Positions 25,029 to 42,722 of a stretch of DNA of 51,935 bases are shown in pieces. The translations under genes were made by a program, and so were the position numbers. Position 1 is the stretch's first letter, and each line of letters starts with the position of its first letter. This DNA comes from Pyrinomonadaceae bacterium (GTDB lineage Bacteria; Acidobacteriota; Blastocatellia; Pyrinomonadales; Pyrinomonadaceae): positions 1-51,935 of the forward strand of contig JAMQPI010000408.1 of assembly GCA_023717565.1 (NCBI GenBank), in the 5' to 3' direction. The notes under the pieces were generated by a model that was given only the letters and a program-made list of their open reading frames with translations, ran no database searches and was not told where the DNA came from.

Positions 25029-26888
25029 TTAAGGCAGGCGGCGCAAAACGAATGAGCCCGCACCGCCCCCGCCCCAGATTGGCTTGGGTAAGTCAGGATA
25101 GTCGCGCGGCATGACGACGGTTATGTACCTCGCAAGGGACAATTCGGTAATAGGATCGGGTGGATTATAACCATCCTGGTCGCGCCAGTGTTTTAGTACG
25201 TGATGAGTAAATACCCCGTGGCTCAATTTGACCATCTCTCGCGCCAAGGCATTACCGGCACAAGCTCCCAGCACCAACCTACCGCGCACACCGGCGAAGA
25301 TTTGCTGAGTTACATTTTGTAAACGGTCTCTGACATTTACGACTTGCTTGATATTGGCGGCAAATCCAGCGTGACAACAATCCAGGAGTAACAATGAGTT
25401 GGGCACTTTCACCCGCGCCATCAAGGTATAAACCAGGTTCTCCATCTCAAGACCGCTTAAGGCGGGCGCGCTCGGATCCGTATCGTAAAGTATCAGATAT
25501 GCGGTCTCATTATTTCCGGGGTCGATCTGACCGTGCCCGGAGAAATGAAAGACAAAGCAACTCTCAGGATGCGGATCAGCCAAGGTGGCCTGATGTAAAG
25601 CTTTGAAAGCATCTTTGATTGAGCTGTACGTCGCATCTTTACCGGTTATTTTGGTGACGCTAAAACCTGATTTCATCAGCAGCGCTTCCATATCGAGAAC
25701 GTCCTGTTCAGCATAGCTCAACGGGTTCAAGATATAATCACCCTTCTCCTGATGCTGGTATATGTTGACGCCCACCAGAAGGGCCAGCCGTTTCTCCGGC
25801 GCGTTTGGGTCTACCTTCATCGGACCCGGCGCAAGTTGACGATCTCTCTGAGGAGCTGTTCCTTTATCCTGCTGACTGAGCTCTGGCGCTGGAAGTTCGT
25901 CTACGAGGCCGTGCTGTTTGATGAAATCGCTAAAACCCTCGCCGGCCAATTGCGGGGGCGGGCCTTCCAGAACATACCCGCGTGTAATGAGAGCTTTAAG
26001 TCCCTGTTCAGCCGGGGCCTTTCCGTGTGCCAGGTCATAAAGCACCTGCTTCTCCGGGTCGCTGCTGTGATCCCAGACATATTGATGTTGTGGGCTTGCC
26101 CTTTTGGCGAAAGAGAGACGTAACTGATTAGTGTCGAGGTGTCCTCCATTTGTTTCGCGCAAATCCCAGGCGAGGCTACAGCACAACTGGAGAAAATACG
26201 TGTGGGTCCCCGCCAGAGAGATGATTGCAGTCGCTTCGGCGTCGCTGAAGCGGCTGCCTGGCAGATTTTTTACCAGTTCCTCAGCCTCGCGTTGATTGAG
26301 CGGCTGGAGGCGCTCCTGGAAAAAAAAGTTGAAAAAGGGAGAGCCGAGGACATCCGAATGCGCGATTTTATTGAGCGGGGCAACCGATGCGACGACGAAC
26401 CCCAGAGGGTATCTCATAGCCAAGGAACGCAGATTCTCGAAAAAGGGCATATCAAATTCCGAGGCGCGCGCCACCAGATCGAACTCGTCAATCAGCAAAA
26501 TCAAACGTTTCCCAGATTTTTTCAGCTTGATGAGAAACTTATAGAAGCCGGTGTAATCTAATGGCGGGTCATCCGTCACAAGTTCACCGGCTTCAACGAG
26601 AGATAGTGTAAGCATCCGGTAGAAGCCTGCGGGACTCTGCGGATTTAGGCTTAGCATATCAATACTGGCAACGACGAGGTCCGGCGTGGCAGCGGCCTCG
26701 CTTTCAAGATATCTCAGCAGAGAAGTTTTCCCGAATCGCCTTTCGCCAAGAACAGAGATGGAATCAGGCAGCGGGTCGACCCTGGTTATATTCCGGAGGA
26801 TTCTGTTGGCCAGCGCGCCATGTGGACCGAGTCTCTCATTGAAATAGAAACGGGACTTGACCGGATTGAGGGTGTAAGGATTAGACAT
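25029..26888 (-). CDS. ATPase-caspase fusion protein (619 aa)
   Basis: N-terminal P-loop ATPase: Walker A GERRFGKT at residues 48-55, Walker B-like LILLIDEFD near 130, and THTYFLQLCC, a motif of STAND-like or archaeal-type ATPases. A linker rich in Pro and Gln (about 330-370) leads to a C-terminal caspase-like peptidase C14 domain beginning RLALLVGVNIYQ. Its dyad is intact: His452 in FHFSGHGQ and Cys505 in LLLDCCHAGF. ATG 26888 has GGAGGT upstream; the long gene upstream ends at 26881, so the two overlap by 8 bases and are probably translationally coupled. The likely role is an NTP-switched protease effector; this is inferred from architecture. Confidence 0.9.
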   Translation of the reverse strand: MSNPYTLNPVKSRFYFNERLGPHGALANRILRNITRVDPLPDSISVLGERRFGKTSLLRYLESEAAATPDLVVASIDMLSLNPQSPAGFYRMLTLSLVEAGELVTDDPPLDYTGFYKFLIKLKKSGKRLILLIDEFDLVARASEFDMPFFENLRSLAMRYPLGFVVASVAPLNKIAHSDVLGSPFFNFFFQERLQPLNQREAEELVKNLPGSRFSDAEATAIISLAGTHTYFLQLCCSLAWDLRETNGGHLDTNQLRLSFAKRASPQHQYVWDHSSDPEKQVLYDLAHGKAPAEQGLKALITRGYVLEGPPPQLAGEGFSDFIKQHGLVDELPAPELSQQDKGTAPQRDRQLAPGPMKVDPNAPEKRLALLVGVNIYQHQEKGDYILNPLSYAEQDVLDMEALLMKSGFSVTKITGKDATYSSIKDAFKALHQATLADPHPESCFVFHFSGHGQIDPGNNETAYLILYDTDPSAPALSGLEMENLVYTLMARVKVPNSLLLLDCCHAGFAANIKQVVNVRDRLQNVTQQIFAGVRGRLVLGACAGNALAREMVKLSHGVFTHHVLKHWRDQDGYNPPDPITELSLARYITVVMPRDYPDLPKPIWGGGGAGSFVLRRLP

Positions 26889-29800
26889 CAGTGTGACCTC
26901 CGCCGTTGGTGGGTGTCGAGTGCTCGTCATTGTATTTTATGGCCGTCGCGAGACTGTCGTACCGCTTTTGCACAAGCCATCTTTGAAAGAGAGGAACAAC
27001 AAACGTGAGCCTCGTTTGATCGTCTTGTTGGATGATGCCACGCTCCGTCAAGCGCTTGACCACCTTGCCAATAGTTAAACTGATTTTGGCCGCAGCGAGT
27101 TGTTCTGAGATTGACGCTAATGAGACATGGGTGGTCGGCTTATCCTCGCTTGCCATGATCGCAAGCACGAGTCTTTCATCGGAGCTGCAATCCGTTTCCG
27201 TCCAGGGATAACCGATATTCTGCTCTCCACTTTCCAGGGCCCGTTTGACGGCTTCTTCAACGTAAGTAATTGTCATCTCATTTAAGCCGGACTCGTTACG
27301 GACATCCAGGAGTGTCTTGCACACGAGCTGTGTGAAGTAGGGGTGACACCCGGCGACTCTCACGATCTCATCGACCGCCAATGATTCGATTGTGTACCAG
27401 GGCTTGACCGGCTCGGTGATGAGCTCGCGCGTATCTTTCTCCGGCAGTTTACCGATTGTAATCGGCACAGCGAGATTGAAGAAGACAGAGTAATACTCAC
27501 CTGTCAGCTCAAGTAGTTTGTAGGTTCCGGCGATGAGAAAGAGCACCGAAGCGTGCTGCATCAAATGCCTGAAGAAATCAAGCACATGGTCATTCAGTTT
27601 CTTGTCATCAATGAGCGTTTTGATGCGGTCGAACTCATCAAGCATCAGAAGGAGGCGCCGATTGCCGAGTCTCTCCGTGATGGGTTTGAGAAACTTGAAT
27701 TTGAAGGTATTTCTCGGAGACTCATCGAAATCGGAGCCGGTTAACTGGGGAACTTGCACATCGACCTCCAGCAAATCCGCTCCCATATTAAGAGCAATGC
27801 CAGAGAAGAACTCGCTCTCATCTTTGCTGCCAGTCAGGCCCTGGACGTCGATATATACAGGGAGGTAAGTGCTTTGCGTGTCCTTTTTCAGGAGGGCAGC
27901 CAGGCGTAAGAGAACCGAAGTCTTGCCAGTCCGGCGTTGTCCCCGGAGCAAGAGAATATTTTGCCCGGCGGCCGGCGCCAGATTGTCTTGAATAATTTTC
28001 AAGACGTCGCCCCGGCCAACAAATAAATTATCGCTAGTCACCGGCAGGCCCGTCACATACGGATTGCTGGCTCTGACGAATTCGGTCTTCTGGACGGGCA
28101 GCGGCGCGAGGTCGCCGAGACAGACGAAAGCTCCCCAATAATAGGGGGAGGGGAATTTTTGCCGGATCGCCGATTGCGCCTGCTGTAAGGCTCGCGACTG
28201 ACTCTTCCCTTCTGCGATGCGCCGATAAAATTCCTGCATCAATTCGGCGGTTTGCTCGTCCGGCACTTGCCACAGATTCATGACAAGCATCTTTGCTCCG
28301 GCGAGGAGAAAAGCTCGCTGCAAGCTAACAACACTCTCGTTAGTAACTCTCTCCCCGTAACCCGTCTGGCAGGCCGAGAGTGTCACTAACTCGGTGCCTG
28401 AGAGGTCCAGGTTCAGAATCTCTTCCGCGGTCAAGAGGCCGTCCTCAGCGACCGAGGGCGGATCCCCGCCACGCAGCCAGGTATTGGCGCCAGCCAGAGC
28501 AATACCTGACTGTCGCAGAGTATGCTCTGCCCCTTGACTGCGCAGGCGGGCCAACCCATCACCACCGGGCCCGCCAATGGTCCCGAAGTCCAGAGAAGTG
28601 TGGTTGATTTCTCTGGGGCGATCCGCGAGGAAAAATCCATGCGCAGCGACGTGCAAGATACGTGGAGAGCGGAAAGCCTTGAGACTCTTTTTCAGTGCCT
28701 TATCGCCGAGCCACGGGCGGACTTGTAGAATCGAGGCGACAAGCTCTCCCTCAACGCGTGTGCCTGGCAATCGAACGAAAGTGGAAAGGCCCTCCATTCC
28801 GTGCCCTGAACGTCTCACCTTTTTCTTGGTCGACGTCGCCAGATCATAGTCCGGGTCAGCGATGATGAGTGTCTCGGTGGGTACACTTGTCGGGAGGATT
28901 TCAAAACGCAGCGCGTCACGGCCAGTATGAAGATAGCTGAAATGATATTTATCGATCAGGTATCCTTCGTTGAGGGGCAGCGCAGCGAATGACAAGTTGA
29001 CGAGGTTACTAGCAGGAGCCAGCAACAGATATGTTTGATCCTCGAGTAAAGGGACTAAGGGATCGAAAACTGCTGTCCGAAGATCATTAGCATGTTCGCC
29101 GGCAGATAGTGAGGCCGATCCTGATTCCGGTATGAGACCCCCGCCGGCCGTTGGGGGATCATTTGAAGTATTTGAGATAGACGCCCTAAACGCGTTGACC
29201 AGTTTGTCAATCGGCTCAGCCTCTCCCAAATCAACCAACTGCACCTTGTCGGGTTCTCTGGCCGGAAGAACAAAGGCCAGATAGCGCGGAGACTTCCAGC
29301 TCGGCTCCCCCAGAGCATGGTTCGCTTGAAAGTTGTACACGTTGAGCCTTACGAATTCGACCAATACAGACTTTTCAGGCAAAGCATGGGCTACGCTTCG
29401 GCGTTCCACACTCCGGAGTCGACGGGATAACTTGATTTCGGGAATTTCGTGTGCCAATTCACCTTCAAGCCGTTCTTTCTGGGTGTTCCAATCATTCAAA
29501 AGTTGTTGCTGGGCGATCAGCCCCCCCGGAGTTTGCAAAATCTTCTGGGCGATCTGTGTGCGCAAGCTGATGAGGTCTCTCAGCTTCACATCCAACCCGG
29601 GATAACGATCAATCAAGGTCAACTCACGCTGGGCGGCCAGAGCTTCTACCATGATGGCCTTGCGCCGTAGGACTAGATCGAAGATTTCGCGAATCGCCGC
29701 CGCCGATCCTTTAAAGTATTGGAGGACCAGCGAGAGAAACATATTGAAATTGTCTTCAATGGCCGTGATGTACATCTTCCGCTGGCGCTCTGAGCCGATG

Positions 29801-32800
29801 GAAAAAATCAGCTCGATCATCGAATCTTCGATGCCCAGGGCTCGTTGCGCCAACTCCATTGCATCTTTTTCGCGTCCGGTGGCAGCAAGGACGACGGCGA
29901 GACTGTTGAGCGTCTGGACAAAGGCGGGGTGTTCCTCTCCAAGACTGATACGTTGAATCTGGTACGCTTGACGGTAGAGAGGCTCGGCGGCGGCATAATC
30001 TCCCATTCTGCGATGGGCCCTGGCCAAATCACAGAAGCTGACAGCCACTTCAGGATTATCCGAACCTAAGACCGTCCGGCGGATTTTCAATGCCTGCTCG
30101 TAGAGCGATTGAGCGGCGGCGTGCTTCGAGGTTTCAAGATAGAGTTCCGCGAGATTGCTGAGGGTGCGGGCGGTGTCCAAATGGTCTGGAGTCAGAACCT
30201 TGCGTTGGATATCGAGTGCCTGCTGGTACAAACGTTCCGCCTCATCATAACGCCCCAACACGTGTTGCAGCTTGGCCATGTTTAGCAGCGTGGCGGCATA
30301 ATCAGGATGAGAATCTCCCAGCACGCTGCGGATCTTTAGGGCATCCGAGTAGAGGGAATTGGCTTCCGAATACTTTCCCAATTCGGTGTACAACTCGGCA
30401 AGATTGTTCAGGCTTTCGCCGTAGCTCGGATGTGTTGGCCCAAGCGAACGACTTTTGATCTCGAGCGCTTGTTTGTAGAGGGTCTCGGCTTCGGTGTAAC
30501 GGCCGATCGCCCGGTACAGTTCGGCCAAATTATTGATGGTTTGTGCAAAATCGGGATGGTTCGTCTTCTGCGAGGTTCGCAAAATACTCATCGCCTCTGC
30601 GAACAAAGGCAATGCGACATCATAATCGCCGATGTCTTTGTATAGGAGGCCCAGATTGTTCAGCTTGCTGGGTAGGGCCGGGCTGTTCTCACTCATGGCG
30701 GTGCGAATAATTTTGAGTGAGTGTTTAAGGAGATCCTCAGCATCATCGTATCTGCCCATCAAGCGATAGAGCTCCCCAAGGTTACCGGTGACTGCGGCAA
30801 AGTCCGGGTGACTCTCGCCGGAAAGGTCTTTCACCACGTCTCTTGCCTGTATGAGAAGTTCTTCGGCCTTAAGGAAATCGCCTCTCGCTTCGTACAGCAA
30901 AGCCAGGTTATTCAAAGTGATGGAATAGTCACGTTTATTGCTTCCTTGTGAAAAGCGGACGCGGTGAATCTCCAATGCCTGTTGATATAGCGCCTCAGCT
31001 TCACCATACCTCGCTGTCTCACGATACAGTTCAGCGAGGTTATTGAGACTTTCGGCATATTCCGGTTTATCTTCTTCTCCTAAAGCGCGGTGGATATCCA
31101 ACGACTGCAAGTAAAGCGGCTCAGCCGCCTCATATCTGGCAACCTGTTTGAAAAGCGTCGCGACGGTGTTCAAGTTGGAAGCGAAGGCGGTCGTGTGCTC
31201 GCCTACATGTTGACGAATCAAGTCACGGGCCTGCGTGGCGATCTCTATCGCCTTCTCATAGTTGCCCTCCAGAAAAAGTTTTACGATCTGAACATCCAGC
31301 TCTTCAATCTGCTCTTCAGGTGACTTCTGTGCCTGGATCCGGACTTCGATTTGCGCTGTCGTCCATTCCACGCTTTGGGCAGCAAGAAGTGCCTGATCCA
31401 GCGTCTCTGCATCCTGTGGATTCACCGCAAGTAGTTCTTCAAGGGGGTTAGCCGATCCTCGTCCAATGCCTCGGGTTCGGATCGAAGGTTGGTCTATTGG
31501 GGGAAGCTCCAGCCAGCGAAAGCTGGTGACTGCAATCGTGGCGAAGGCCTTGATGACGTCAGTACCTTGCTGGAATCCAGACGGCAGCGCTACTTGCAAC
31601 GGCATTGTCAACGCGTTCTGCTCGCCGGGTTCAAGGAGCGCGTGGTCAACATCCGCGTTTGGATGAACCTCTGAAATCGCCCAGTCGGGCTGTAGATCAA
31701 GCAAAGAAACGGCAAGAGTTCGCTGCGAAGTGTTGCACACGCGAAGCATAACGCGGTCACCGACATTAAAAGTCAGGGGACTACCAGAGTTAAGGGGCAT
31801 CTGGGGAATAGGGTGGCTCCCCGGTTCGTAATCCGGCGGCAATCTGTTCAGTTCGATCAGTATTTTGCCCGCCAAAGGTGACAGTACATTGTTGTTTTCA
31901 AACATCAGGACGTTGCGATACTTAGAAAGGTGGATCAGACGCTGGACCAGACGCGCCGGAGCAGCGTGATCGTCAGTTCGCAACGCAGGGCGTAGATTGG
32001 GGATTAGGTTTCCGGCAGGATCCCAGATCTCATACTCACTATCAGGGTTGACCGCGACCTGATAATCGGCATAATCATCAGCAACCAGATTGATGAGTCT
32101 ACTGTTCTCCTGCTTCAGAGCTTCTGCTATTTGATTGAGCGCGCTGTCCTGATCAATCGACGGCGTCAAGGGATTCTCACTTTGGCGCACGAGACGCACC
32201 CGCAAACTCAGGCGGAGGAGAGCTTCCGGATCAAGATGTACTGCTCGCGCACCCGGTTCAACCGTTTTACTCCAATTAGACATCAATGACAGCTTGGCCC
32301 ATGATTCGGTTGGGCCAACCTTTTCAATTTCGGCGAGGACAAGGGATTTATCCGTTTGACCCAGGTCGGGTTGTCCCGGTGGGTAGATGATAAGTCTTGA
32401 ACCCGGTCTGATGTCTCGGTCTTGCCCGGCTTTGATCAACACTCGCTGACTCTGAGTGTCGACCTGAAGTACCTCGAAAGGTAGCAATTCTTCCTGCTGA
32501 CCGAAAAACACCGTCCGGTCAAACTCCCCCTCCAATTGTGCCGTCTGCTGGACGAATTGGCTGTGAATCTTGGCAACGATTCGGTTGTGCAATTGTCTGA
32601 ACGTTAAGTCAGGCGTGCTCCTTCGTAGTGAATCGAGAAGCCAGTAGGTCAGCACACCGTTTCTCTCCTGACCGTTGAAAGCGTACTCGTAAGCTGATTC
32701 GGAGGAATGACAGGCGGCGAGCAGGACATGACCTTTCCACTCGGGAAACCATCCACTTCCGCCGTAGTCGCGACCTGTCTGGGGGAAGGCGCTATCCGGC

Positions 32801-33417
32801 CATGATTGAATAAGCTCCTCGCGTGCTGCTACCAAACTATCGGTCGAGGCCCTTGTTGTATCAACGGTGGGAATGCATCTGACTGCTGCACCTCCCATGC
32901 CTCTGGTTAATACACCTGAGTAGCAGGTATCTAACACCAGTGTCACGATCAATCCTTTAGCAACCATCCTCTTGATTAGGAACAACAGTTCGACATCGCG
33001 CAGATAACGCCCCGGCAATTTGCCGATGTCGGCCGGAACGAGCGAGTTGTCAAGTCCGTCCCGCCCCTTGATTTCAGGAAACATGGTCGAGGCGCGTCGA
33101 CCGGGGCCGGAATAATGGATATAGACCTGATCGCCAGGCTGGGCCACATCGGTCAGTTTTTTGAAGGCGGCGACCATGTTCTCGTAGGTGGGCCAGTCTT
33201 CTTGGGACTCAACGGAACTCGCAGCACTACTTGGAGCTGTTAGTTTCAAGATGTGCTCGCTCTTGCGCCCCCAACGTTTTTTTAGAACCTCTTCAAGTTG
33301 GAGCACATCACGGACGCAGCCGCTGAGGTCTGGGTAGTAACTGCCATCGGGCAATTTGTTCGGCGTGTAACGGTCAATACCGATTAGTAGGGCATACAAA
33401 TTGGGGTTTATGATCAT
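26881..33417 (-). CDS. Giant fusion: caspase-like / 12 TPR / CHAT protease / ATPase (2178 aa)
   Basis: Domains in order: caspase-like peptidase C14 (residues about 5-330), in which Cys165 (LDTCYSG) is kept but the catalytic His is Pro105 (HYSGPG); a DUF4384-like beta domain (about 500-660, LLDLQPDWAISEVHP); 12 kinesin-light-chain-type TPRs (about 700-1200, unit like GRYTEAETLYKQALEI); a helical linker; a CHAT protease (about 1390-1770) with intact dyad His1593 (LHVAAHGFF) and Cys1683 (LSACQTGYG); and a C-terminal ATPase with Walker A GQRRTGKTS near 1825, LLLMLDEFD, the GCHPYFTQLVC motif and a winged-helix end. The TPRs are likely a sensor or scaffold, the ATPase a switch and CHAT the active protease. 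It overlaps the next gene by 8 bases. Its N-terminal 650 residues are paralogous to the divergent gene at 34129. Confidence 0.9.
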   Translation of the reverse strand: MIINPNLYALLIGIDRYTPNKLPDGSYYPDLSGCVRDVLQLEEVLKKRWGRKSEHILKLTAPSSAASSVESQEDWPTYENMVAAFKKLTDVAQPGDQVYIHYSGPGRRASTMFPEIKGRDGLDNSLVPADIGKLPGRYLRDVELLFLIKRMVAKGLIVTLVLDTCYSGVLTRGMGGAAVRCIPTVDTTRASTDSLVAAREELIQSWPDSAFPQTGRDYGGSGWFPEWKGHVLLAACHSSESAYEYAFNGQERNGVLTYWLLDSLRRSTPDLTFRQLHNRIVAKIHSQFVQQTAQLEGEFDRTVFFGQQEELLPFEVLQVDTQSQRVLIKAGQDRDIRPGSRLIIYPPGQPDLGQTDKSLVLAEIEKVGPTESWAKLSLMSNWSKTVEPGARAVHLDPEALLRLSLRVRLVRQSENPLTPSIDQDSALNQIAEALKQENSRLINLVADDYADYQVAVNPDSEYEIWDPAGNLIPNLRPALRTDDHAAPARLVQRLIHLSKYRNVLMFENNNVLSPLAGKILIELNRLPPDYEPGSHPIPQMPLNSGSPLTFNVGDRVMLRVCNTSQRTLAVSLLDLQPDWAISEVHPNADVDHALLEPGEQNALTMPLQVALPSGFQQGTDVIKAFATIAVTSFRWLELPPIDQPSIRTRGIGRGSANPLEELLAVNPQDAETLDQALLAAQSVEWTTAQIEVRIQAQKSPEEQIEELDVQIVKLFLEGNYEKAIEIATQARDLIRQHVGEHTTAFASNLNTVATLFKQVARYEAAEPLYLQSLDIHRALGEEDKPEYAESLNNLAELYRETARYGEAEALYQQALEIHRVRFSQGSNKRDYSITLNNLALLYEARGDFLKAEELLIQARDVVKDLSGESHPDFAAVTGNLGELYRLMGRYDDAEDLLKHSLKIIRTAMSENSPALPSKLNNLGLLYKDIGDYDVALPLFAEAMSILRTSQKTNHPDFAQTINNLAELYRAIGRYTEAETLYKQALEIKSRSLGPTHPSYGESLNNLAELYTELGKYSEANSLYSDALKIRSVLGDSHPDYAATLLNMAKLQHVLGRYDEAERLYQQALDIQRKVLTPDHLDTARTLSNLAELYLETSKHAAAQSLYEQALKIRRTVLGSDNPEVAVSFCDLARAHRRMGDYAAAEPLYRQAYQIQRISLGEEHPAFVQTLNSLAVVLAATGREKDAMELAQRALGIEDSMIELIFSIGSERQRKMYITAIEDNFNMFLSLVLQYFKGSAAAIREIFDLVLRRKAIMVEALAAQRELTLIDRYPGLDVKLRDLISLRTQIAQKILQTPGGLIAQQQLLNDWNTQKERLEGELAHEIPEIKLSRRLRSVERRSVAHALPEKSVLVEFVRLNVYNFQANHALGEPSWKSPRYLAFVLPAREPDKVQLVDLGEAEPIDKLVNAFRASISNTSNDPPTAGGGLIPESGSASLSAGEHANDLRTAVFDPLVPLLEDQTYLLLAPASNLVNLSFAALPLNEGYLIDKYHFSYLHTGRDALRFEILPTSVPTETLIIADPDYDLATSTKKKVRRSGHGMEGLSTFVRLPGTRVEGELVASILQVRPWLGDKALKKSLKAFRSPRILHVAAHGFFLADRPREINHTSLDFGTIGGPGGDGLARLRSQGAEHTLRQSGIALAGANTWLRGGDPPSVAEDGLLTAEEILNLDLSGTELVTLSACQTGYGERVTNESVVSLQRAFLLAGAKMLVMNLWQVPDEQTAELMQEFYRRIAEGKSQSRALQQAQSAIRQKFPSPYYWGAFVCLGDLAPLPVQKTEFVRASNPYVTGLPVTSDNLFVGRGDVLKIIQDNLAPAAGQNILLLRGQRRTGKTSVLLRLAALLKKDTQSTYLPVYIDVQGLTGSKDESEFFSGIALNMGADLLEVDVQVPQLTGSDFDESPRNTFKFKFLKPITERLGNRRLLLMLDEFDRIKTLIDDKKLNDHVLDFFRHLMQHASVLFLIAGTYKLLELTGEYYSVFFNLAVPITIGKLPEKDTRELITEPVKPWYTIESLAVDEIVRVAGCHPYFTQLVCKTLLDVRNESGLNEMTITYVEEAVKRALESGEQNIGYPWTETDCSSDERLVLAIMASEDKPTTHVSLASISEQLAAAKISLTIGKVVKRLTERGIIQQDDQTRLTFVVPLFQRWLVQKRYDSLATAIKYNDEHSTPTNGGGHTDV

Positions 33418-34128: not shown

Positions 34129-37100
34129 ATGGCCGACACCAACTCCAAACTCTACGCGTTATTGATTGGCATCGACCGCTACATGCCGAACACATTGCCC
34201 GATGGCGGTTACTACCCAGACCTCGGCGGCTGCGTCCGCGATATCACGCATGTCGAGCAGATGCTCCGCAACACGCTCGGCTTACCTGACGATCGCATCT
34301 TCAAGCTCACCGCGCCCGTAACCAAAGGTGAGACCACCCAGGAGCCGGAAGATCAGCGGCCGTCGTACGAGAATATGGTGGCGGCATTTAAGAAGTTGAC
34401 CTCCAGGGCAGGCCCAGGTGATCAGGTCTACATCCATTATTCCGGCCATGGCGGACGCACGCCGACCCTGTTCCCCAAGCTTAAAGGAGCCAATGGGCTC
34501 GACGAGTCGCTCGTTCCGACAGACATCGGCGACAAGGGTACGCGCTATCTGCGCGATGTTGAAATGTCGCATTTGCTCAAGGCCATGAGCGACAAAGGGC
34601 TGCTCGTGACAATGGTGCTTGACAGCTGCCACTCCGGCGGAGCCACCAGAGGCCTGGGCGGAGGAGCGGTCAGAGGCATATCCAGCGTAGACACCACCGA
34701 GCGGCCCGCCGATAGTTTGGTAGCAACCAACGAGGAGTTATCACAAACCTGGCTCGGCGTTACATCCGGCAAAACCCGCAGCGTCAATGCCGCGAGTGGA
34801 TGGCTGCCTCAGATGAAAGGATATGTTCTGCTCGCCGCCTGCCGCTCTAATGAGTTGGCCAATGAGTATGCCTTCGACGGCAAGGAAAGAAACGGAGCGC
34901 TCACCTACTGGTTACTTGACGCCCTTAAGCAGAACGGTTCAGGCCTAACCTATCGCATGCTTTATAACCGGATCGTGGCGAAGGTTCATGCCAAGTTCGT
35001 GGAACAGACGCCGCAACTCGAAGGCGAAGGCAATCGTGAAATCTTCGGCAGCGATCAGATGAAATCCCAATATGCGGTAAATATACTGAAGGTTGATCCG
35101 CAAAAGAAACGGCTGTTGCTAAACACGGGACGGACGCAGGGGATCAGCAAAGGAACTCAATTTGCCGTATATCCGGCGGGCGCCGATTTCAACAATACCG
35201 AGAAGCGGCTGGCGGTGGTTGAGCTGGAGGATCCTACGGAGACCGAGACATGGGCCAACATCGTACAGCAGTTACGCGAAGGCGAAATCCAGGAGGGTGC
35301 GCAGGCCTTATTGTTGGGAGTCGGAATTCGCATGCGGGGCAGAATCCGGTTAGTGCGCCAGGATACGCTGCCGGCTGCTGTGGATCAGGAGTCGCCGCTG
35401 CAACGCTTGCAAGATGAGCTCAACGAGAACGGGGCGGCAAATGAAAACAAGTGGGTGCGACTCGTCGCCAAAGATGAGGAGGCGGATTTGCAGGTGGCGA
35501 TCAATGCCCACGGCGAATATGAAATCTGGGACGCGGACGGAAAAGCCGTCCCCAACTTGCGTCCAGCTCTGCAGGGCGCCGATAAAAATAATGCAGCCAG
35601 GGTATTGCGGAGGCTGATCCACCTAACCAAGTATCGGAATGTGAGATTGATCGACAACCCGGATCCGAACTCCACACTGGCGCGAAAATTGATCATTGAA
35701 TTGGGGACGAGAAATCCGCCGGCGAACGGTGAGGAAGGTATTGGCACCTTCGGAGAAACGTTTGGTCTGCGGTCAAGACCACTCTCGATTGGTGAAGTGG
35801 TGTGCTTGCGCGTCAAGAATCTGTCGAATAAAGCTGTTAACGTTACCGTACTCGATCTACAACCCGACTGGGGCATCTCGCAAGTACATCCTCCACCTAA
35901 TCCCGAAACCGGGGAGGCAAAGGACTACGAGCTTCTTGAGCCGGGTGACGAGAATGCGCTCCTCATTCCGCTTAGAACTGATCTCCCGGAGGGATATCAG
36001 CAAGGGACGGACGTAATTAAGGCCATCGCGGCCGTCGAAGGCACAAGTTTTCGTTGGCTGGAACTCCAGTCCCTCGATCAGCCATCTTCAACCAAGGGAA
36101 TCACCAGGGGGCCAGCCAACCCGCTTGAAGAGTTGATGAAAGCATTCGCCTCAGACCAGCTTACGCGGCAGGTCGTCAACCTTACCGCTCCGAAGGTCAA
36201 GAGCTGGGGTACGGCTGAAGTGGAGGTGCGCGTCCGCCGTCCAACCATTGCGCATGTCCACGATCCGAGCATTTCTTTACTGCAATCCGCTTTCGACGAA
36301 GTGATCGCTAAAACGGATGGGGAAACAAAAACGAGAAGCGTCGGCGGTCGAGAAGAGTTAATTAGACGCCCAGAACTAAGCGATCCAATAATCAGCGAAA
36401 TTACGCAGTACTGCCTGGCAGTGGCAAACGGGGACATCTCGCCTGATGATTTGCCCTCACTCGATCAGGACAACAAACTAACTCCAGGACAATCGCGGGC
36501 ACTGGGGGAGGCTCAGGAGCGTGGGGCGGTTGACCAGGTGAAATACTGCGCGAGCATGGCCGTCGGGATGGCCAAAAACCTGTGGGCGGCGAAGTTCCGC
36601 GGTGATACAACGCTATACAATCAATACCAGGCCGCATTAACGAAACCTTTCGGCGATTGTGATACCAAGTACAGGGACGCCCTGATCCAATATGCCAAAT
36701 TCCTAGCCAATAAAGGCGAGATTCCCTACATCAAGTGGAAGCTACAAAGCGATTTCGTGATTGATGATAAAGAAAAGCTGCCGGCAAATGCCGTGATTGG
36801 AATTGTCGCCGATTGGGGTACAGGTGAGCCGGAGGCGGTAGAGGTTCTAAGGCAGGTCAAGAGTCATAACCCGCAAGTCGTAATGCATCTCGGCGATATT
36901 TACTACGCCGGAACCGAGCATGAGGTTGAGAACTACTTTTACCAGCCGTGGAAGCGTGTCCTCGAACTCGATACATCGAAGATTTTGTCTCTGGTGCTCC
37001 CCGGCAACCACGATCTGTACGCTGGTGGAAAGCCATTCTATGACTTGCTGGAGAGGCTTGGCCAGGGGGCGAGTTTCTTCTGTCTGAGAAATGAGCACTG

Positions 37101-37614
37101 GCAATTGATCGGTCTGGACACTGCGCTTAACGATAGACTCGCAGGCCAGCCAACTGCTCTTGACCCAACCGAAGCCGAGTGGCTGATCGACAAGATTGAG
37201 AATGCGGGGAAGAGGCGCACTATACTGCTCTCTCATCATCAGTTGTTTTCGACCAATGAGCAGTTCGACGGCAAGAGTTACAACCAAAACCTCTACGATC
37301 AGCTCTCTGCCATTCTGCCGAAAGTTGACATGTGGTTGTGGGGACACGAGCACGACCTCGTTCTCTTTGATGAGTATAAAGGTCTGAAGCGCGGGCGATG
37401 CATCGGCGGTTCGGCCTTCCCTGTCGGCAATTTCGAGATGCCGACAACGCATGTCAACCCAGACGTTCCCTTCAACCAAGACGTGGCATTAAGCAAGGGT
37501 TCGGCTTTTTACCAGCACTGCTACGTAATGATCAAACTCGACGGTCCCAGTGCGAAGATCTCCTATTACGAAGACCTCGACGGCGGAAGGGTGGTGTACA
37601 CGGAGAACCTTTAG
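34129..37614 (+). CDS. Caspase / metallophosphoesterase fusion protein (1161 aa)
   Basis: The N-terminal peptidase C14 domain (about 5-310) has an intact dyad, His107 in HYSGHGGR and Cys167 in LDSCHSGG. It is followed by a DUF4384-like beta domain (about 530-665, LDLQPDWGISQVHP) and, after a helical stretch (about 700-885), a calcineurin-like phosphoesterase (about 888-1161). All metal-binding motifs are present: Asp895 (ADWGTG), Asp923 (GDIYY), Asn960/His961 (GNHD), His1036/1037 (SHHQ) and His1073/His1075 (GHEHD). Residues 1-665 are paralogous to the giant fusion on the other strand. The C-terminal enzyme could hydrolyse a nucleotide, cyclic nucleotide or nucleic acid; the substrate is not readable. 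It starts the plus-strand arm, 80 bp before the WD40-caspase gene. Confidence 0.9.
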   Translation: MADTNSKLYALLIGIDRYMPNTLPDGGYYPDLGGCVRDITHVEQMLRNTLGLPDDRIFKLTAPVTKGETTQEPEDQRPSYENMVAAFKKLTSRAGPGDQVYIHYSGHGGRTPTLFPKLKGANGLDESLVPTDIGDKGTRYLRDVEMSHLLKAMSDKGLLVTMVLDSCHSGGATRGLGGGAVRGISSVDTTERPADSLVATNEELSQTWLGVTSGKTRSVNAASGWLPQMKGYVLLAACRSNELANEYAFDGKERNGALTYWLLDALKQNGSGLTYRMLYNRIVAKVHAKFVEQTPQLEGEGNREIFGSDQMKSQYAVNILKVDPQKKRLLLNTGRTQGISKGTQFAVYPAGADFNNTEKRLAVVELEDPTETETWANIVQQLREGEIQEGAQALLLGVGIRMRGRIRLVRQDTLPAAVDQESPLQRLQDELNENGAANENKWVRLVAKDEEADLQVAINAHGEYEIWDADGKAVPNLRPALQGADKNNAARVLRRLIHLTKYRNVRLIDNPDPNSTLARKLIIELGTRNPPANGEEGIGTFGETFGLRSRPLSIGEVVCLRVKNLSNKAVNVTVLDLQPDWGISQVHPPPNPETGEAKDYELLEPGDENALLIPLRTDLPEGYQQGTDVIKAIAAVEGTSFRWLELQSLDQPSSTKGITRGPANPLEELMKAFASDQLTRQVVNLTAPKVKSWGTAEVEVRVRRPTIAHVHDPSISLLQSAFDEVIAKTDGETKTRSVGGREELIRRPELSDPIISEITQYCLAVANGDISPDDLPSLDQDNKLTPGQSRALGEAQERGAVDQVKYCASMAVGMAKNLWAAKFRGDTTLYNQYQAALTKPFGDCDTKYRDALIQYAKFLANKGEIPYIKWKLQSDFVIDDKEKLPANAVIGIVADWGTGEPEAVEVLRQVKSHNPQVVMHLGDIYYAGTEHEVENYFYQPWKRVLELDTSKILSLVLPGNHDLYAGGKPFYDLLERLGQGASFFCLRNEHWQLIGLDTALNDRLAGQPTALDPTEAEWLIDKIENAGKRRTILLSHHQLFSTNEQFDGKSYNQNLYDQLSAILPKVDMWLWGHEHDLVLFDEYKGLKRGRCIGGSAFPVGNFEMPTTHVNPDVPFNQDVALSKGSAFYQHCYVMIKLDGPSAKISYYEDLDGGRVVYTENL

Positions 37615-37694
37615 CGTTTGGAGTCTATTTCATAGTTGTTCACGAAAACCACTAGCGCTTAATACCAAATCCAGGCTACGAGGTTAAGGTCCTA

Positions 37695-40600
37695 ATGATC
37701 ATCTCACCGAGGCCAAGGAATCGTCTCAAGCTGGGGCGATGTGAGTCGTTCGAGCAAGCTCTATGGCGCAGCGACGATCGCCCTCACGTCATAGTTGATG
37801 CCCGTGCTCGCCCACACCGGTGCGCGGACGTGGCGTGGAGCCCTGACGATCGAATGATCGCAGCGGCGACGACAGGCGGCGTGAAAGTCTGGACGCTTGG
37901 CCCGACCGCCGAGATGCGTACCTTCCTAGTGGAAGGTTCCGGGGCAACGTTAAGTGCGTTTAGTGGGGATGGCCGGTTGCTGGCCTCCGCCTCGGGGGAG
38001 GGGCGATTGGCGGTCTGGGAACTCGCCTCCGGTCGACGTCTCTGGTCTGTCCTCGCGCATTCGAAAGGCTTCGCCAGTCTCAAGTTTAATCCTGCGAGCG
38101 ACGCCGTCATTTCTGTCGGGCTCGATGGCGCGGTGAAGATTTGGAGCGTCTCCCCTGGGAAGCTCTTGCGCGCGGTTCCGGTTCCAAAGCTGTCTGTCGA
38201 CGGGTGCGCCGTCAGCGCTGACGGGCGACTCGTCGCCCTCGGCGGCGACGGCGGTGTCACTCTCCTGGATACGCGTAGGGGCGCGCAACGGCGGGGAGAT
38301 ATACCGGGCGATGTCTGGGTAAACAGCGCAGTCTTTGCCGCGGAGGGAGCAATCCTCGCCACCGGCGGATCCGACGGCGTTGTGCGCCTCTGGAGTACCG
38401 GAACCGCAAAGCTCTTGCGAAAAATCTCCCGCCCGTTCGGTCAATCGGTGCCAGGAAAACGCGGCCGGTCGATACTGCGGCGGTCCGCGGACGGCCGTCC
38501 CAGCGCGGGCGAGGCAGGTCGCTCCGGTCCTGACCTGGTACTGTCCCTCGCCTTTGGATGCGATGATTCACTACTTGCTGGAGGAACGGTGGGTGGCGGC
38601 GTGGCGGTGTGGAAAGCCAAATCCGGGTCTCTACTTCATTTCACCAATGCGCACACGTATTACGTGACTGGGGTCGCGTTCAGCCACGATGGGAGCATGC
38701 TGGCCACGTCTGGAGGGCTCGATCGGATCGTTAAGATCTGGGACGTCGGCCGCAAGCTTGAGGAGTTGGTGACGCTCATCGCGCTTGGCGACGATCAATG
38801 GGCGGCGGTGACGCCCGATGATCGCTTCGATGCGTCGAGCGGAGGTCTCGAGTACATTCACTGGGCGTTCGGCACACGAGCGCCGGTACCTGTGAAGCAG
38901 GTGCCTGAGCAGCCGCCCGATCCCACCATCTTGCCATCAGTCGGTCAGAGGCGAGCGCGCGGACGCACACGCACACGCACACCGCGAACGAGTTTGACTT
39001 CGTTCCCAAAGCAACCCGAACCACCAGTCTCTTCGGAGGAGGGATCGCGGAAACCGGTACTGACCGTCCGGACGCGACCGTCACATCGACTGCGAAGTGT
39101 CGCGTGGAATGAGGACAGCACTATTCTCGCGGGTGGCACCGAAGATGGAAACATCGATATCTGGGATCGCGCGACCGGTCGAGAGCTGCGCACCTTGCGC
39201 GGCCACGACGACACGATCACCTCCCTCATCTTTGCCGGACCAGACATTTTAGCCAGCGGCGCGAGGGATAGCACAGTGCGGCTCTGGAACATAAGAACCG
39301 GCGAGCTGCTTCACACATTCCTCGTCGGGTTGCCGGATACCGGAGTCTCGATCGCATCCGCGGTGGCGGACGGACTCCTGATATGCGCAAGTTACGAAGG
39401 CACGATCCGATGGCTGCACCTAGGGCAACGGACATGCGTGAACACGGCGCGAATACTCTTCGAAGAAGACGGCATGACGTCGCTCCTCAGCGAACTGGTC
39501 ATAGTCAGTCCGGACGGTCGGATGGCTATCCGTCCATACGATCGCTACACGGTTGCAGCTTTCGATCTGCCGGCGCAAAAGCTGCGATACGAGTTCCACT
39601 CGGACGATACGCCTGGCGGGATCGCCTTCGACAAGAATGGCAAACGGTTTGCCGTGGGCGGTGCCACCACCCGACAAATGATCATCCTGGGAGGCCGACA
39701 AGGAAAGGGGGCCGCGGAACATCCACTCGAGACCTACGCCGTCGATGTGCGACGGACCGAAGACGGAACCCGAGTCCAGTCGCATCTGGGCCATCACCGC
39801 AACGTCGTCGCCCTTGCGTTCAGACCCGACGGCGCCTCACTCGCGACGGGAGCCTGGGAGGGCACGGTTCGAGTCTGGGGAAAAAACACCAGGAAGGAAC
39901 AACAGCGACTGGAAACCCGTTTCGACGCGGTGCCGGCCGTGGCTTACAACCGGGACGGGTCGTTGCTGGCTACGGGAGAAGCAAGGGGTCACTTCGACGG
40001 CCGGATCAGCGTGTGGGACACGGCGTCCGGGAAGCGGGTGCAGACTTTCGAACGCCACATTGGTGATGTCCATCCAGTTCGGTTCAGTCCCGATGGGACA
40101 CTGCTGGCCGCGGCCGGTGAAGATGGGATCCTGCGCTTGTGGCGCCTGAGACTCCGAACGCCGCCGACACTCATCAAAGGCCACACTGGACGGATCTTCT
40201 CACTCGCATTCTCTCCCGATGGTCAATACATCGCCACCGCCAGTTGGGACGGCACCAGCCGGCTGTGGCGTACCGATACCGGCGAGCTTGTGTGGATGCT
40301 CGATTCTCGGGCGACGGTGAGGGTTTGGTCGGTGGCGTTTAATCCAGATGGGCTGAGTCTAGCCACGGGATGCGACGACGGCAGCGTGAGGGTTTGGGAC
40401 ATCGCTACCGGTGAGCAGTTGCGGACGATGGAAGGGGGACCGCCTGCTCACGATGAGGCAGTCTTTGGCTTGGCGTTTTCTCCTGATGGCGAGTTGCTCG
40501 CGACCGGGGCCATGGATCATCGCATCGTGCTCTGGGACATCAGCACCGGCAAAGCCCGAAGAGTGATTGCCCACGATGCATGGGTCTCTAGCCTGGACTT

Positions 40601-42722
40601 CAACAACGACGGGACAATACTCGCGGCCGGCGATCTCGATCAGGAGATCTGTCTCTGGGACTTGGAAACGCGCAAGGCACGCCGGCGTTTGAGCGGGCAC
40701 GCCAAGCCGGGGCACATCGAGAAGGGGACGTCCGTGCGGTTCAGCCGCGACGGCACTCTGCTGGCGAGCGGAGGCACCGACGGGACCTTAAGGTTGTGGG
40801 ACCCGGCCGCGGGCAAGCAGCTCGCGGTGGTTCATGGTCATTCGGGACCGGTCGCGTCGGTGGACCTCAACGCCACCAATACGCTCCTCGCCGCCGGTAG
40901 CAATGACGCCAGCGCTAGCATCTGGGACCTTCGGGATCCCATGGCACCAGCGAAGATCTGTAACCTCTATTCGTTTCCGGACGGCACCTGGGCGGTGGTC
41001 GACGCCCGCGGCCGTTTCGATGCCGCCAACGGCGGCGACATCCCGTGGTTGCACTGGGTCGTCGGTCTGGAAACCGTCGCTTTGAGCCAGTTGAAGGAGC
41101 GGTATTACGAGCCCAATCTCCTTCCGAAGCTGATGGGCGCCGACGCGGAGCCACTGCGCGACGTGCCGTCGCTGCAAGAGGTGGAGCTTCATCCTGACGT
41201 CGAGCTGCTCGCGGTGGAGTCGGGCGGCAAGCGGGCGCGTATCCGGCTAACCAACCGCGGCGGTGGAATCGGACGCGTAGTCGTTTCGATCAACGGCAAG
41301 GAGGCCAACGCCGACGCGCGCGGCGAGGATCCGGATGTGCTCGCGCCGGAGCTGGAGATGTCCATCGACGTCGCAAAGCACCCATTCCTGAAGCCGGGGA
41401 AGAACGTCTGCGAAGTACGGGCGTACAACGCGGCGGGCTATCTAGTAGGACGACAGCTTAGGTGGGTGTGTCCTGGTCCCCGAAAGTCGACTGAGGCGCC
41501 CAGGCTCTGGGGCGTGGTCGCCGGGGTTTCGGACTATCAGGGAGACAAGCTGGATCTGCGTTTCGCCGCCAAGGACGCAGCCGACTTCGCGGCCGCAGTG
41601 CGAGTCGGAGCGGCGAGGCTGTTCGGGGCCGACCGAGTCCACCTGCGATTGTTGGTGGCGCCCCACCGCCCGTCCGCTACTGAAAGTGATCAGTCCGTCG
41701 CCCCTGGCCGGAGCGCCAACAGCGAGGAACAATGGCCCACGCGCCAGAATCTCCTGCGGGCGTTCGAAGAGGCGCGAGCGGCAAAGTCCGCCGATGTTCT
41801 CATCGTGTATTTGGCTGGCCACGGCGTCAATCAGGGAGGCCAGGACGGCGATTACTATTATCTTACAGCGGACGCGCGAACCGGGGACCTAGCCGATCCC
41901 GCCGTCCGCCAGCAGACCGCCATTTCGAGCCGCGAGCTAACGGAATGGATTCGCCTGATACCCGCGCTCAAGCAGGCTGTGATCCTGGACACGTGCGCCG
42001 CGGGGCGTTTCGTCGAAACGCTGAGTGAGCACCGAACCATCCCTAGCAGCCAGGCACGTGCGCTGGAGCGCCTGACGGATCGGATGGGTACCTACATCCT
42101 GGCTGGGTCAGCCGCTGACGCCGTCAGTTACGAATCGAGCCGTTACGGGCAAGGCCTCCTGACGTACAGCGTGCTGTTCGGCATGCGCGGTGCCGCGCTT
42201 CGCGATGAGGAATTCGTGGATATCGCGAGGCTCTTCGAGCATGCAGCAGACTATGTCCCGCAGCTCGCGACCGATCTCGGCGGCATTCAGCGCCCGCTCA
42301 TCGCGTCGCCCGCGGGAGGAAGCAGCTTCGACATCGGATGGCTGGAGCGAACCGATCGCGAGCGGATTCCACTGGCCATCATCCGACCGCTGGTGCTGGG
42401 CGTCCAGCTCGAGGAGGAAACCACGTGGAAGGACAGCCTCGAGGTAACGAGAGCAGTGAACGCGATCTTGCGGGAAGAGTCGGCCCGTCCTGAGGCCTCG
42501 GTCATCTTCATCGACGCGCGGGAGCACCCCGACGCCTACCAGCTTCGCGGGCGCTACCGGATCGAGGGTGACCGCGTGACAATGGCGCTAAAGCTCTTTT
42601 GGCGCGAAGAGATGGTTTCCAGCTTCGAACAGTCGGGGCGCCGGTCAGGCGTTGACGCGCTCGCACGCGAGCTGGCTACGCATACAATCGGCCTGGTGGT
42701 CGAGCAGTTTAACCAAGAGTGA
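37695..42722 (+). CDS. WD40 (about 21 blades) / caspase protein (1675 aa)
   Basis: By eye there are 7 WD40 blades in residues about 30-360 and 14 more in about 455-1090, enough for three seven-bladed propellers. Each block is followed by a similar linker: WAAVTPDDRFDASSGG with IHWAFG near 366-390 and WAVVDARGRFDAANGG with LHWVVG near 1095-1120. An Ig-like beta domain (about 1165-1260) leads to a caspase-like peptidase with intact dyad His1376 (YLAGHGVN) and Cys1434 (LDTCAAGRF). The last 120 residues resemble TolB/FlgO-type nucleoside-binding domains. The protein is probably cytosolic, with a sensing WD40 scaffold and protease effector. GC use is visibly higher than in the adjoining protease genes (41 of 60 bases in one hand-counted line). 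The 80-bp gap to the preceding gene suggests an operon. Confidence 0.9.
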   Translation: MIISPRPRNRLKLGRCESFEQALWRSDDRPHVIVDARARPHRCADVAWSPDDRMIAAATTGGVKVWTLGPTAEMRTFLVEGSGATLSAFSGDGRLLASASGEGRLAVWELASGRRLWSVLAHSKGFASLKFNPASDAVISVGLDGAVKIWSVSPGKLLRAVPVPKLSVDGCAVSADGRLVALGGDGGVTLLDTRRGAQRRGDIPGDVWVNSAVFAAEGAILATGGSDGVVRLWSTGTAKLLRKISRPFGQSVPGKRGRSILRRSADGRPSAGEAGRSGPDLVLSLAFGCDDSLLAGGTVGGGVAVWKAKSGSLLHFTNAHTYYVTGVAFSHDGSMLATSGGLDRIVKIWDVGRKLEELVTLIALGDDQWAAVTPDDRFDASSGGLEYIHWAFGTRAPVPVKQVPEQPPDPTILPSVGQRRARGRTRTRTPRTSLTSFPKQPEPPVSSEEGSRKPVLTVRTRPSHRLRSVAWNEDSTILAGGTEDGNIDIWDRATGRELRTLRGHDDTITSLIFAGPDILASGARDSTVRLWNIRTGELLHTFLVGLPDTGVSIASAVADGLLICASYEGTIRWLHLGQRTCVNTARILFEEDGMTSLLSELVIVSPDGRMAIRPYDRYTVAAFDLPAQKLRYEFHSDDTPGGIAFDKNGKRFAVGGATTRQMIILGGRQGKGAAEHPLETYAVDVRRTEDGTRVQSHLGHHRNVVALAFRPDGASLATGAWEGTVRVWGKNTRKEQQRLETRFDAVPAVAYNRDGSLLATGEARGHFDGRISVWDTASGKRVQTFERHIGDVHPVRFSPDGTLLAAAGEDGILRLWRLRLRTPPTLIKGHTGRIFSLAFSPDGQYIATASWDGTSRLWRTDTGELVWMLDSRATVRVWSVAFNPDGLSLATGCDDGSVRVWDIATGEQLRTMEGGPPAHDEAVFGLAFSPDGELLATGAMDHRIVLWDISTGKARRVIAHDAWVSSLDFNNDGTILAAGDLDQEICLWDLETRKARRRLSGHAKPGHIEKGTSVRFSRDGTLLASGGTDGTLRLWDPAAGKQLAVVHGHSGPVASVDLNATNTLLAAGSNDASASIWDLRDPMAPAKICNLYSFPDGTWAVVDARGRFDAANGGDIPWLHWVVGLETVALSQLKERYYEPNLLPKLMGADAEPLRDVPSLQEVELHPDVELLAVESGGKRARIRLTNRGGGIGRVVVSINGKEANADARGEDPDVLAPELEMSIDVAKHPFLKPGKNVCEVRAYNAAGYLVGRQLRWVCPGPRKSTEAPRLWGVVAGVSDYQGDKLDLRFAAKDAADFAAAVRVGAARLFGADRVHLRLLVAPHRPSATESDQSVAPGRSANSEEQWPTRQNLLRAFEEARAAKSADVLIVYLAGHGVNQGGQDGDYYYLTADARTGDLADPAVRQQTAISSRELTEWIRLIPALKQAVILDTCAAGRFVETLSEHRTIPSSQARALERLTDRMGTYILAGSAADAVSYESSRYGQGLLTYSVLFGMRGAALRDEEFVDIARLFEHAADYVPQLATDLGGIQRPLIASPAGGSSFDIGWLERTDRERIPLAIIRPLVLGVQLEEETTWKDSLEVTRAVNAILREESARPEASVIFIDAREHPDAYQLRGRYRIEGDRVTMALKLFWREEMVSSFEQSGRRSGVDALARELATHTIGLVVEQFNQE

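What the first reader, a model, noticed from the sequence alone, without database searches (positions are those of the whole stretch)
34129..37614. Caspase fused to a complete calcineurin-like phosphoesterase
All five metal-binding motifs of the phosphoesterase and the caspase dyad are intact in one chain. A protease joined to a phosphoesterase suggests cleavage releases or activates the second enzyme, or that it turns over a nucleotide messenger controlling the neighbouring ATPases.
Basis: partly seen in the sequence, partly recalled or inferred. Interest (0 to 1): 0.7.

Follow-up and report, generated by a model that had tools for sequence, protein, structure and literature searches.

The report
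Bacterial caspase fused to acid phosphatase
A soil-type bacterium (Acidobacteriota) makes one protein that joins a cell-death-type protease to a phosphatase related to the mammalian enzyme TRAP, and relatives of this phosphatase are repeatedly found beside or fused to proteases, suggesting a protease-controlled phosphatase, possibly in bacterial immunity.

Summary
Window 34129-37614(+) encodes 1161 aa with an intact metacaspase-type domain (H107/C167) and an intact two-metal phosphoesterase in one frame. Three corrections sharpen it. (1) The C-terminal enzyme belongs in the purple acid phosphatase (PAP; TRAP/ACP5) group: all seven PAP ligands, including the Tyr, are conserved, and the model matches pig PAP at Z 25.9. 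(2) Residues about 705-885 are not a linker but the helical cap of a ~450-aa stand-alone PAP family. (3) The fusion occurs in two more Acidobacteriota (a third is truncated). The same PAP family follows an S8 subtilase in 18 loci, and TIR-TIR-caspase-RyR-like genes (type IV Thoeris-like) in Alphaproteobacteria; one origin for both caspase pairings is rejected (p 2e-9). The 17-kb island carries four caspase genes, one a divergent sister whose catalytic His is Pro: a pseudo-caspase on TPR-CHAT-STAND. Best reading: a caspase-gated phosphatase effector in a STAND/CHAT conflict island, activated by proteolysis as TRAP is by cysteine proteases. The pairing is shown; cleavage, activation, substrate and immune role are inferred. 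It is a new variant of the protease-activated-effector theme (Canu, Hachiman, AVAST). A nucleotide messenger acting on the neighbouring ATPases is unsupported.

The parts
34129..37614 (+). caspase-PAP fusion protein, 1161 aa, cytoplasmic by sequence (no signal peptide or TM segment seen)
34129..35058 (+). metacaspase-type (C14) domain, residues 1-310; H107 (34447-34449), C167 (34627-34629)
   Evidence: Pfam PF00656; PDB metacaspases by sequence; plant metacaspase 9 Z 26.7 and bacterial GSU0716 Z 25.1
35059..36228 (+). middle module, residues 311-700: beta-rich, FlgT-C-like plus Ig/MSP-like, shared with the neighbouring paralogue and with stand-alone caspase proteins
   Evidence: 49% identity to neighbour over the first 703 residues; weak FlgT and MSP fold hits; weak DUF4384/FlgT_C in relatives; PADLOC 'caspase' model spans 7-673
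36229..36240 (+). RVRR at residues 701-704, at the module boundary, kept in all three complete fusions; candidate metacaspase cut site (inferred)
36241..36783 (+). helical cap of the phosphatase, residues about 705-885, with the family's N-terminal motif (HDPSISLLQSAFDEV)
   Evidence: conserved in stand-alone relatives; model pLDDT mostly above 80
36784..37611 (+). PAP/TRAP-like phosphoesterase catalytic domain, residues 886-1161; ligands D895, D923, Y926, N960, H1036, H1073, H1075
37123..37170 (+). loop at residues 999-1014, in the position of the TRAP repression loop; R1003 (37135-37137) present in all four caspase-clade sequences
   Evidence: alignment; position in the TRAP alignment
26881..33417 (-). 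divergent paralogue, 2178 aa: pseudo-caspase (catalytic His replaced by Pro105, Cys165 kept) + same middle module + TPR + CHAT + STAND-type ATPase; possible sensor partner
25029..26930 (-). nSTAND2/AAA ATPase fused to an intact C-terminal caspase, 633 aa; overlaps the end of the preceding gene
37695..42722 (+). WD40-repeat protein with an intact C-terminal caspase, 1675 aa, 80 bp downstream on the same strand; a WD40-caspase gene also follows in L077

Best explanation
The protein is a caspase-gated phosphatase effector. The N-terminal metacaspase-type protease and its Ig/FlgT-like middle module are a constant unit that carries different effectors in different proteins. Here the effector is a cytoplasmic purple-acid-phosphatase-like enzyme taken from a stand-alone family. 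In the resting state the phosphatase is held low in activity. A trigger is sensed by the STAND/CHAT/TPR/WD40 proteins of the island, plausibly through heterotypic contact between the active caspase-middle module and the matching pseudo-caspase-middle module of the divergent 2178-aa protein. The caspase then turns on and cuts in cis or trans, at the RVRR junction and/or the TRAP-type loop near R1003. This frees or unmasks the phosphatase, which hydrolyses essential phosphorylated metabolites or nucleotides and arrests the cell. Shown: architecture, intact catalytic residues, predicted PAP fold, repeated pairing with proteases, the pseudo-caspase sister. Inferred: resting inhibition, sensing, cutting, activation, substrate, immune role.
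For: Intact dyad and seven metal ligands. PAP/TRAP is the only PDB family reached by the family profile (E 1e-13) and the top fold (Z 25.9). TRAP is made as a low-activity form activated by excision of a loop by cysteine proteases (PMC7081696). The phosphatase family is repeatedly paired with a protease: fused caspase in L076 and L077 as well as here; S8 subtilase 18-46 bp upstream in 18 loci; TIR-TIR-caspase-RyR-like-PAP operons. Tree: caspase-fused clade 100/100, grouping with S8-associated Acidobacteriota at 92/85; a single clade of all caspase-linked members rejected, p 2.4e-9. The basic loop residue R1003 is in 4 of 4 fused-clade proteins but 2 of 15 S8-paired rows and none of the six typical TIR-operon rows. 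The caspase-middle unit also carries DUF7379 alpha/beta-hydrolase or TPR-CHAT-STAND partners. Three of the island's four caspases are intact and the divergent one has lost the His. Published precedent: caspase-activated pro-nuclease Canu and protease-activated nucleases in Hachiman/AVAST (PMC12799240).
Against: No cut site, cleavage or activation has been shown. R1003 and RVRR are shared by only a few related sequences, so they could be plain ancestry. In the window RVRR is followed by Pro, a poor P1' residue. Many relatives of the phosphatase (Burkholderia, Granulosicoccaceae, Paenibacillaceae) have no recognised protease beside them. The S8-paired loci carry GMC oxidoreductase, alpha/beta-hydrolase and RoxA-like cytochrome genes, which look metabolic rather than immune. 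No PADLOC model other than generic 'caspase' matches the fusion. No phage or prophage signs were examined in the window.
Confidence: 0.42

Rival explanations
1. The phosphatase is a regulator, not an effector: it destroys a nucleotide-type immune signal (such as an ADP-ribose-derived messenger) and so resets or tunes the caspase to which it is tethered.
For: In Alphaproteobacteria the same family follows TIR, TIR, caspase and an RyR-like gene; TIR enzymes of type IV Thoeris make N7-cADPR that activates a caspase-like protease (reported in PMC12847820) and phage RyR-domain proteins bind or cut cADPR signals (PMC13232231). The fold also matches ADPRibase-Mn (Z 20.0) and SMPDL3A (Z about 19). The other fusion-clade loci have a CHAT-SIR2-type gene next door.
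Against: No TIR_2 gene in the window's genome (89% complete) or in two of the three other fusion-clade genomes. The TIR-caspase-small loci sampled without regard to the phosphatase all lack it. PAP/TRAP is a closer match than ADPRibase-Mn in both sequence and fold.
Confidence: 0.2
2. Two parallel effectors on one scaffold: protease and phosphatase both act after the same trigger, and the fusion only ensures equal dosage and common recruitment; there is no cutting of one by the other.
For: The middle module alone could be the common switch; it is shared with the pseudo-caspase sister and carries unrelated C-terminal partners. The cap helices next to the junction are folded rather than exposed.
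Against: It does not by itself explain why the stand-alone phosphatase is placed next to an unrelated protease fold (S8) in other loci.
Confidence: 0.23
3. A housekeeping or developmental phosphatase (phosphate scavenging, lipid or metabolite turnover) whose fusion to a caspase is regulatory or incidental, with no role in conflict.
For: Related genes lie with GMC oxidoreductase, alpha/beta-hydrolase and RoxA-like cytochrome genes or with a pyridine-nucleotide oxidoreductase. The window's remaining genes outside 25-43 kb look like ordinary transport and metabolism.
Against: The island has four caspase genes with STAND, CHAT, TPR and WD40 modules within 17.7 kb, the composition described for bacterial conflict systems (PMC8195603). 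Fusion-clade loci L076, L077 and L079 share CHAT-SIR2-type and nSTAND1 genes.
Confidence: 0.15

Closest known systems
[quoted passage not shown]
   Same: Same predicted fold (Z 25.9 over 259 residues), same seven metal ligands including Tyr, loop at the same place as the protease-excised repression loop
   Different: No signal peptide seen, extra helical cap, fused to its own caspase, only about 17-19% identity; purple Fe centre and acid optimum untested
Canu (caspase-nuclease) and the protease-activated nucleases of Hachiman/AVAST (PMC12799240)
   Same: Protease paired with a second hydrolase, recurrently acquired; caspase family protease; Ig-like domain reported in CanA
   Different: Here the second enzyme is a PAP-fold phosphatase, not an MBL nuclease, and is on the same chain; no activation shown
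Type IV Thoeris (TIR + caspase-like protease, N7-cADPR)
   Same: Relatives of the phosphatase sit directly downstream of TIR-caspase-RyR-like genes
   Different: No TIR gene in the window or detected in its genome; different caspase branch (with the middle module); the phosphatase is absent from the other such loci sampled
EACC1/EACC2 caspase systems with a constant module and variable domain (PMC8195603)
   Same: Constant caspase-containing part with swapped C-terminal partners, STAND NTPases nearby
   Different: NCBIfam EACC1-type caspase model scores 24 bits against a cut-off of 140; middle module is not shown to be EACC1 or EACC2
Calcineurin-like phosphoesterase effectors fused to TRADD-N or STAND-FGS proteins (PMC8195603)
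   Same: Phosphoesterase as predicted effector in bacterial conflict systems
   Different: Not described as the PAP-like capped family nor as fused to a caspase in the passages read

Membership tests
Purple acid phosphatase (TRAP-like) | Seven metal ligands in motifs GDXG, GDXXY, GNH, XXH, GHXH | tested here: met
   D895, D923, Y926, N960, H1036, H1073, H1075; invariant or nearly so in 42 relatives
Purple acid phosphatase (TRAP-like) | PAP catalytic fold | tested here: met
   Model pLDDT 91; top eight fold matches are mammalian PAPs, Z 24.7-25.9
Purple acid phosphatase (TRAP-like) | Fe(III)-M(II) centre, purple colour, acid phosphatase activity | not testable with these tools
   needs purified protein
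Metacaspase (C14) | His-Cys dyad in SGHG / DSCHSG context and caspase fold | tested here: met
   H107, C167; metacaspase 9 Z 26.7, GSU0716 Z 25.1
Metacaspase (C14) | Cleavage after Arg/Lys, often Ca2+-dependent | not testable with these tools
   DSC motif is present, activity unknown
Canu caspase-nuclease system | Metallo-beta-lactamase-fold pro-nuclease as the partner | tested here: not met
   C-terminal enzyme is PAP-fold; none of the four island proteins scanned gave an MBL hit
Type IV Thoeris | TIR gene beside the caspase gene | tested here: not met
   No TIR in the neighbouring proteins; TIR_2 not found in the genome assembly
EACC1 caspase system | EACC1-associated caspase subfamily (NF047832 at or above 140 bits) | tested here: not met
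   24.4 bits
EACC2 caspase system | EACC2 alpha+beta domain preceding the caspase | tested here: not met
   Caspase begins at residue about 7, nothing precedes it

The most novel reading that the evidence does not exclude
Bacteria use a recurrent protease-phosphatase proenzyme pair: a cytoplasmic TRAP-like phosphatase activated by a co-encoded or fused caspase (or subtilase), acquired independently by STAND/CHAT islands and by TIR-caspase systems, with a pseudo-caspase partner controlling activation as c-FLIP does for caspase-8.
Probability: 0.3. Interest if true: 0.82.

Novelty: new variant of a known kind. Interest (0 to 1): 0.6.

Why it matters
The protease-activated effectors described in the papers read here are nucleases (Canu, Hachiman, AVAST). 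A phosphatase as the gated second enzyme would extend the theme to a new chemistry and give a bacterial counterpart of the cysteine-protease activation of TRAP. The active/pseudo-caspase pair encoded back to back would make pseudo-caspase control testable in a simple system, and the TIR-caspase-RyR-like-phosphatase plasmid operon gives a ready test case in cultured strains.

Tried and rejected
Mixed alignments of fusion, caspase-only and phosphatase-only rows (A2, A4) misplaced the partial rows, so domains were aligned and folded separately and no full-length model with domain arrangement was made. No match in phage records. Rfam gave nothing. Promoter and terminator scans were at or near chance. 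TIR genes in the window's genome: none, so a Thoeris assignment was dropped. ADPRibase-Mn as the closest family was considered and set aside: PAPs score higher. A literature search for caspase + metallophosphoesterase + TIR + phage defense found nothing; the main type IV Thoeris paper (Rousset 2025) did not come up in the held library and Burroughs 2015 is not held, so I cannot say whether they already note the phosphatase gene. A fold search with the middle module alone was not done, so its fold is only suggested.
Full report
OBSERVATION. The ORF is real and exact: 34129-37614 (+), 1161 aa, ATG to stop, no interruption. Pfam finds Peptidase_C14 at 9-299 (E 6.8e-21) and Metallophos at 890-1076 (E 3.8e-15). 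The dyad H107/C167 sits in HYSGHG and DSCHSG, and the phosphoesterase motifs are all present: ADWGTG, HLGDIYY, GNHD, LLSHHQ, GHEH. A joining error is very unlikely because the same fusion exists in two other Acidobacteriota genomes, L076 (SZAS-13, 1203 aa as called) and L077 (CP_BM_RX_R9_16, 1106 aa), both with all motifs intact. A fourth sequence, L079, starts inside the gene at a contig end. The window's genome itself is placed in Acidobacteriota: its 'same phylum' genome G305 holds a 97,454-base contig, the length of the record that genome contigs names 'Acidobacteria bacterium isolate SZAS-4', with 100% identical neighbouring proteins.

ANATOMY, C-TERMINAL PART. Residues from about 705 on match, over their whole length, stand-alone proteins of about 450 aa that begin with the same motif (RDPxLSLWQSAxDEV; window HDPSISLLQSAFDEV). 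The model of 701-1161 (42 rows) has mean pLDDT 91, and the cap is folded helices. A profile of the family reaches only mammalian purple acid phosphatases in the PDB (E 1e-13). Foldseek and VIA-align give PAPs first (Z 25.9, rmsd 2.9 over 259 residues to 7ov2; plant PAP and GpdQ about 23; ADPRibase-Mn 2nxf 20.0; SMPDL3A about 19). The seven PAP ligands, including the Tyr of GDXXY, are D895, D923, Y926, N960, H1036, H1073 and H1075; all are invariant or nearly invariant in A6. The enzyme is therefore best described as a cytoplasmic (no signal seen) PAP/TRAP-like phosphatase, not just 'calcineurin-like'.

ANATOMY, N-TERMINAL PART. Residues 1-310 model as a metacaspase (metacaspase 9 Z 26.7; bacterial GSU0716 Z 25.1). 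Residues 311-700 are beta-rich, with weak fold hits to FlgT and to an MSP/Ig-like domain and weak DUF4384/FlgT_C hits in relatives. The PADLOC 'caspase' model runs across 7-673, so the caspase-middle unit is a known kind of protein. It occurs alone in Acidobacteriota and in cyanobacterial plasmids at up to 46% identity. It also occurs fused to other partners: DUF7379 alpha/beta-hydrolase in L053-L055, STAND in L060, and TPR-CHAT-STAND in the window neighbour.

THE ISLAND. Within 25029-42722 there are four caspase genes. The divergent 2178-aa neighbour shares 49% identity over the first 703 residues, but its catalytic His is Pro (HYSGPG, Pro105) while Cys165 is kept; its CHAT domain keeps His and Cys motifs. 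L060 shows the same HYSGPG change, has no recognisable catalytic Cys motif, and is fused to STAND. The nSTAND2-caspase (25029-26930) and the WD40-caspase (37695-42722) are intact. The fusion gene has its own upstream region of 711 bp, and the WD40-caspase gene follows after 80 bp. In L076, L077 and L079 the fusion-clade gene is followed by CHAT-SIR2-type and nSTAND1 genes; L077 then has a WD40-caspase gene as the window does. The window lacks the CHAT-SIR2 and nSTAND1 genes beside the fusion.

THE PROTEASE PAIRING. Of 84,980 species genomes scanned, 490 stretches encode relatives and the best 80 were read. An S8 subtilase gene lies 18-46 bp upstream on the same strand in 18 loci, across deep divergences and including one Acidimicrobiia genome, often with GMC oxidoreductase, alpha/beta-hydrolase and RoxA-like cytochrome genes. 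On alphaproteobacterial plasmids and chromosomes, and in two IMG/VR contigs, the phosphatase follows TIR, caspase and mostly a 90-100-aa gene with a weak RyR-domain match (E 0.0025, below cut-off). The TIR-caspase-small core also occurs without the phosphatase: 52 plasmid records carry the caspase, 11 carry a phosphatase relative, and all five further caspase loci examined lack it. In a tree of 47 sequences the caspase-fused clade has 100/100 support and groups with S8-paired Acidobacteriota (92/85); the TIR-caspase clade is separate (100/100, apart from the long-branched L075). A single clade of ten caspase-linked members (L075 left out) is rejected (p-AU 2.4e-9), and so is a single clade of the S8-paired ones (p-AU 1.2e-4). 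Caspase pairing therefore most likely arose at least twice, and in Acidobacteriota the fused caspase may have replaced the S8 partner (inference).

MECHANISM. TRAP is made as a low-activity form whose loop of about 20 residues is excised by cysteine proteases, giving high activity (PMC7081696). The equivalent stretch here is residues 999-1014. R1003 is in all four fused-clade sequences, in 2 of 15 S8-paired rows, and in none of the six typical TIR-operon rows. A second candidate is RVRR at 701-704, kept in the three complete fusions. Metacaspases prefer Arg/Lys at P1 (established knowledge of the family). This makes proteolytic gating the leading model, as in Canu and in Hachiman/AVAST nucleases (PMC12799240). 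The sequences sharing these residues are few and related, the P1' residue in the window is Pro, and nothing here shows that a cut occurs. The pseudo-caspase sister suggests control by a heterodimer, by analogy with c-FLIP; this is inference only.

WHAT IS NOT SUPPORTED. A nucleotide messenger acting on the ATPases: no TIR_2 gene was found in the 89%-complete genome, nor in two of the three other fusion-clade genomes, and the substrate is unknown. It remains a rival because of the TIR/RyR context elsewhere and of PAP relatives that act on nucleotides.

VERDICT. I score interest 0.6: an intact, recurrent protease-phosphatase pairing with a pseudo-caspase sister is unusual and directly testable, but it fits an existing theme and function is untested.

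Noticed in passing
L070 7791-11356 (NC_009475.1 18224-21789); also L071, L072, L073, L075, L116, L140, L156, L162: Operon TIR-TIR-caspase-small RyR-like-PAP phosphatase (some members lack one part or have it rearranged) on alphaproteobacterial plasmids, chromosomes and viral contigs; looks like type IV Thoeris with an added phosphatase.
   Followed up: partly
window 26881-33417 (-), codon 33103-33105: Catalytic His of the caspase replaced by Pro while the Cys is kept: a pseudo-caspase fused to TPR-CHAT-STAND, back to back with the active sister. L060 carries the same HYSGPG change and no catalytic Cys motif.
   Followed up: partly
L081-L102, L143 (for example L100 6405-12412): Conserved Acidobacteriota locus of S8 subtilase + PAP-like phosphatase with GMC oxidoreductase, alpha/beta-hydrolase, an unnamed ~200-aa domain and RoxA-like cytochrome; function unknown.
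   Followed up: partly
L053, L054, L055: The same caspase-middle unit fused to a DUF7379 alpha/beta-hydrolase-like domain, a possible lipase-type effector.
   Followed up: no
L112, L114, L120, L122, L130 and others: In Granulosicoccaceae the phosphatase gene abuts or overlaps a gene of about 463 aa; the one scanned (L114) is a pyridine-nucleotide-disulphide oxidoreductase.
   Followed up: no
window 25029-26930 (-) and 26881-33417 (-): The nSTAND2-caspase ORF as called overlaps the end of the 2178-aa gene by 50 bp, suggesting translational coupling of the two.
   Followed up: no
L140 4673-7771: A caspase fused to a DEAD/DEAH helicase directly upstream of the TIR-TIR-caspase-phosphatase operon in Afipia birgiae.
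   Followed up: no
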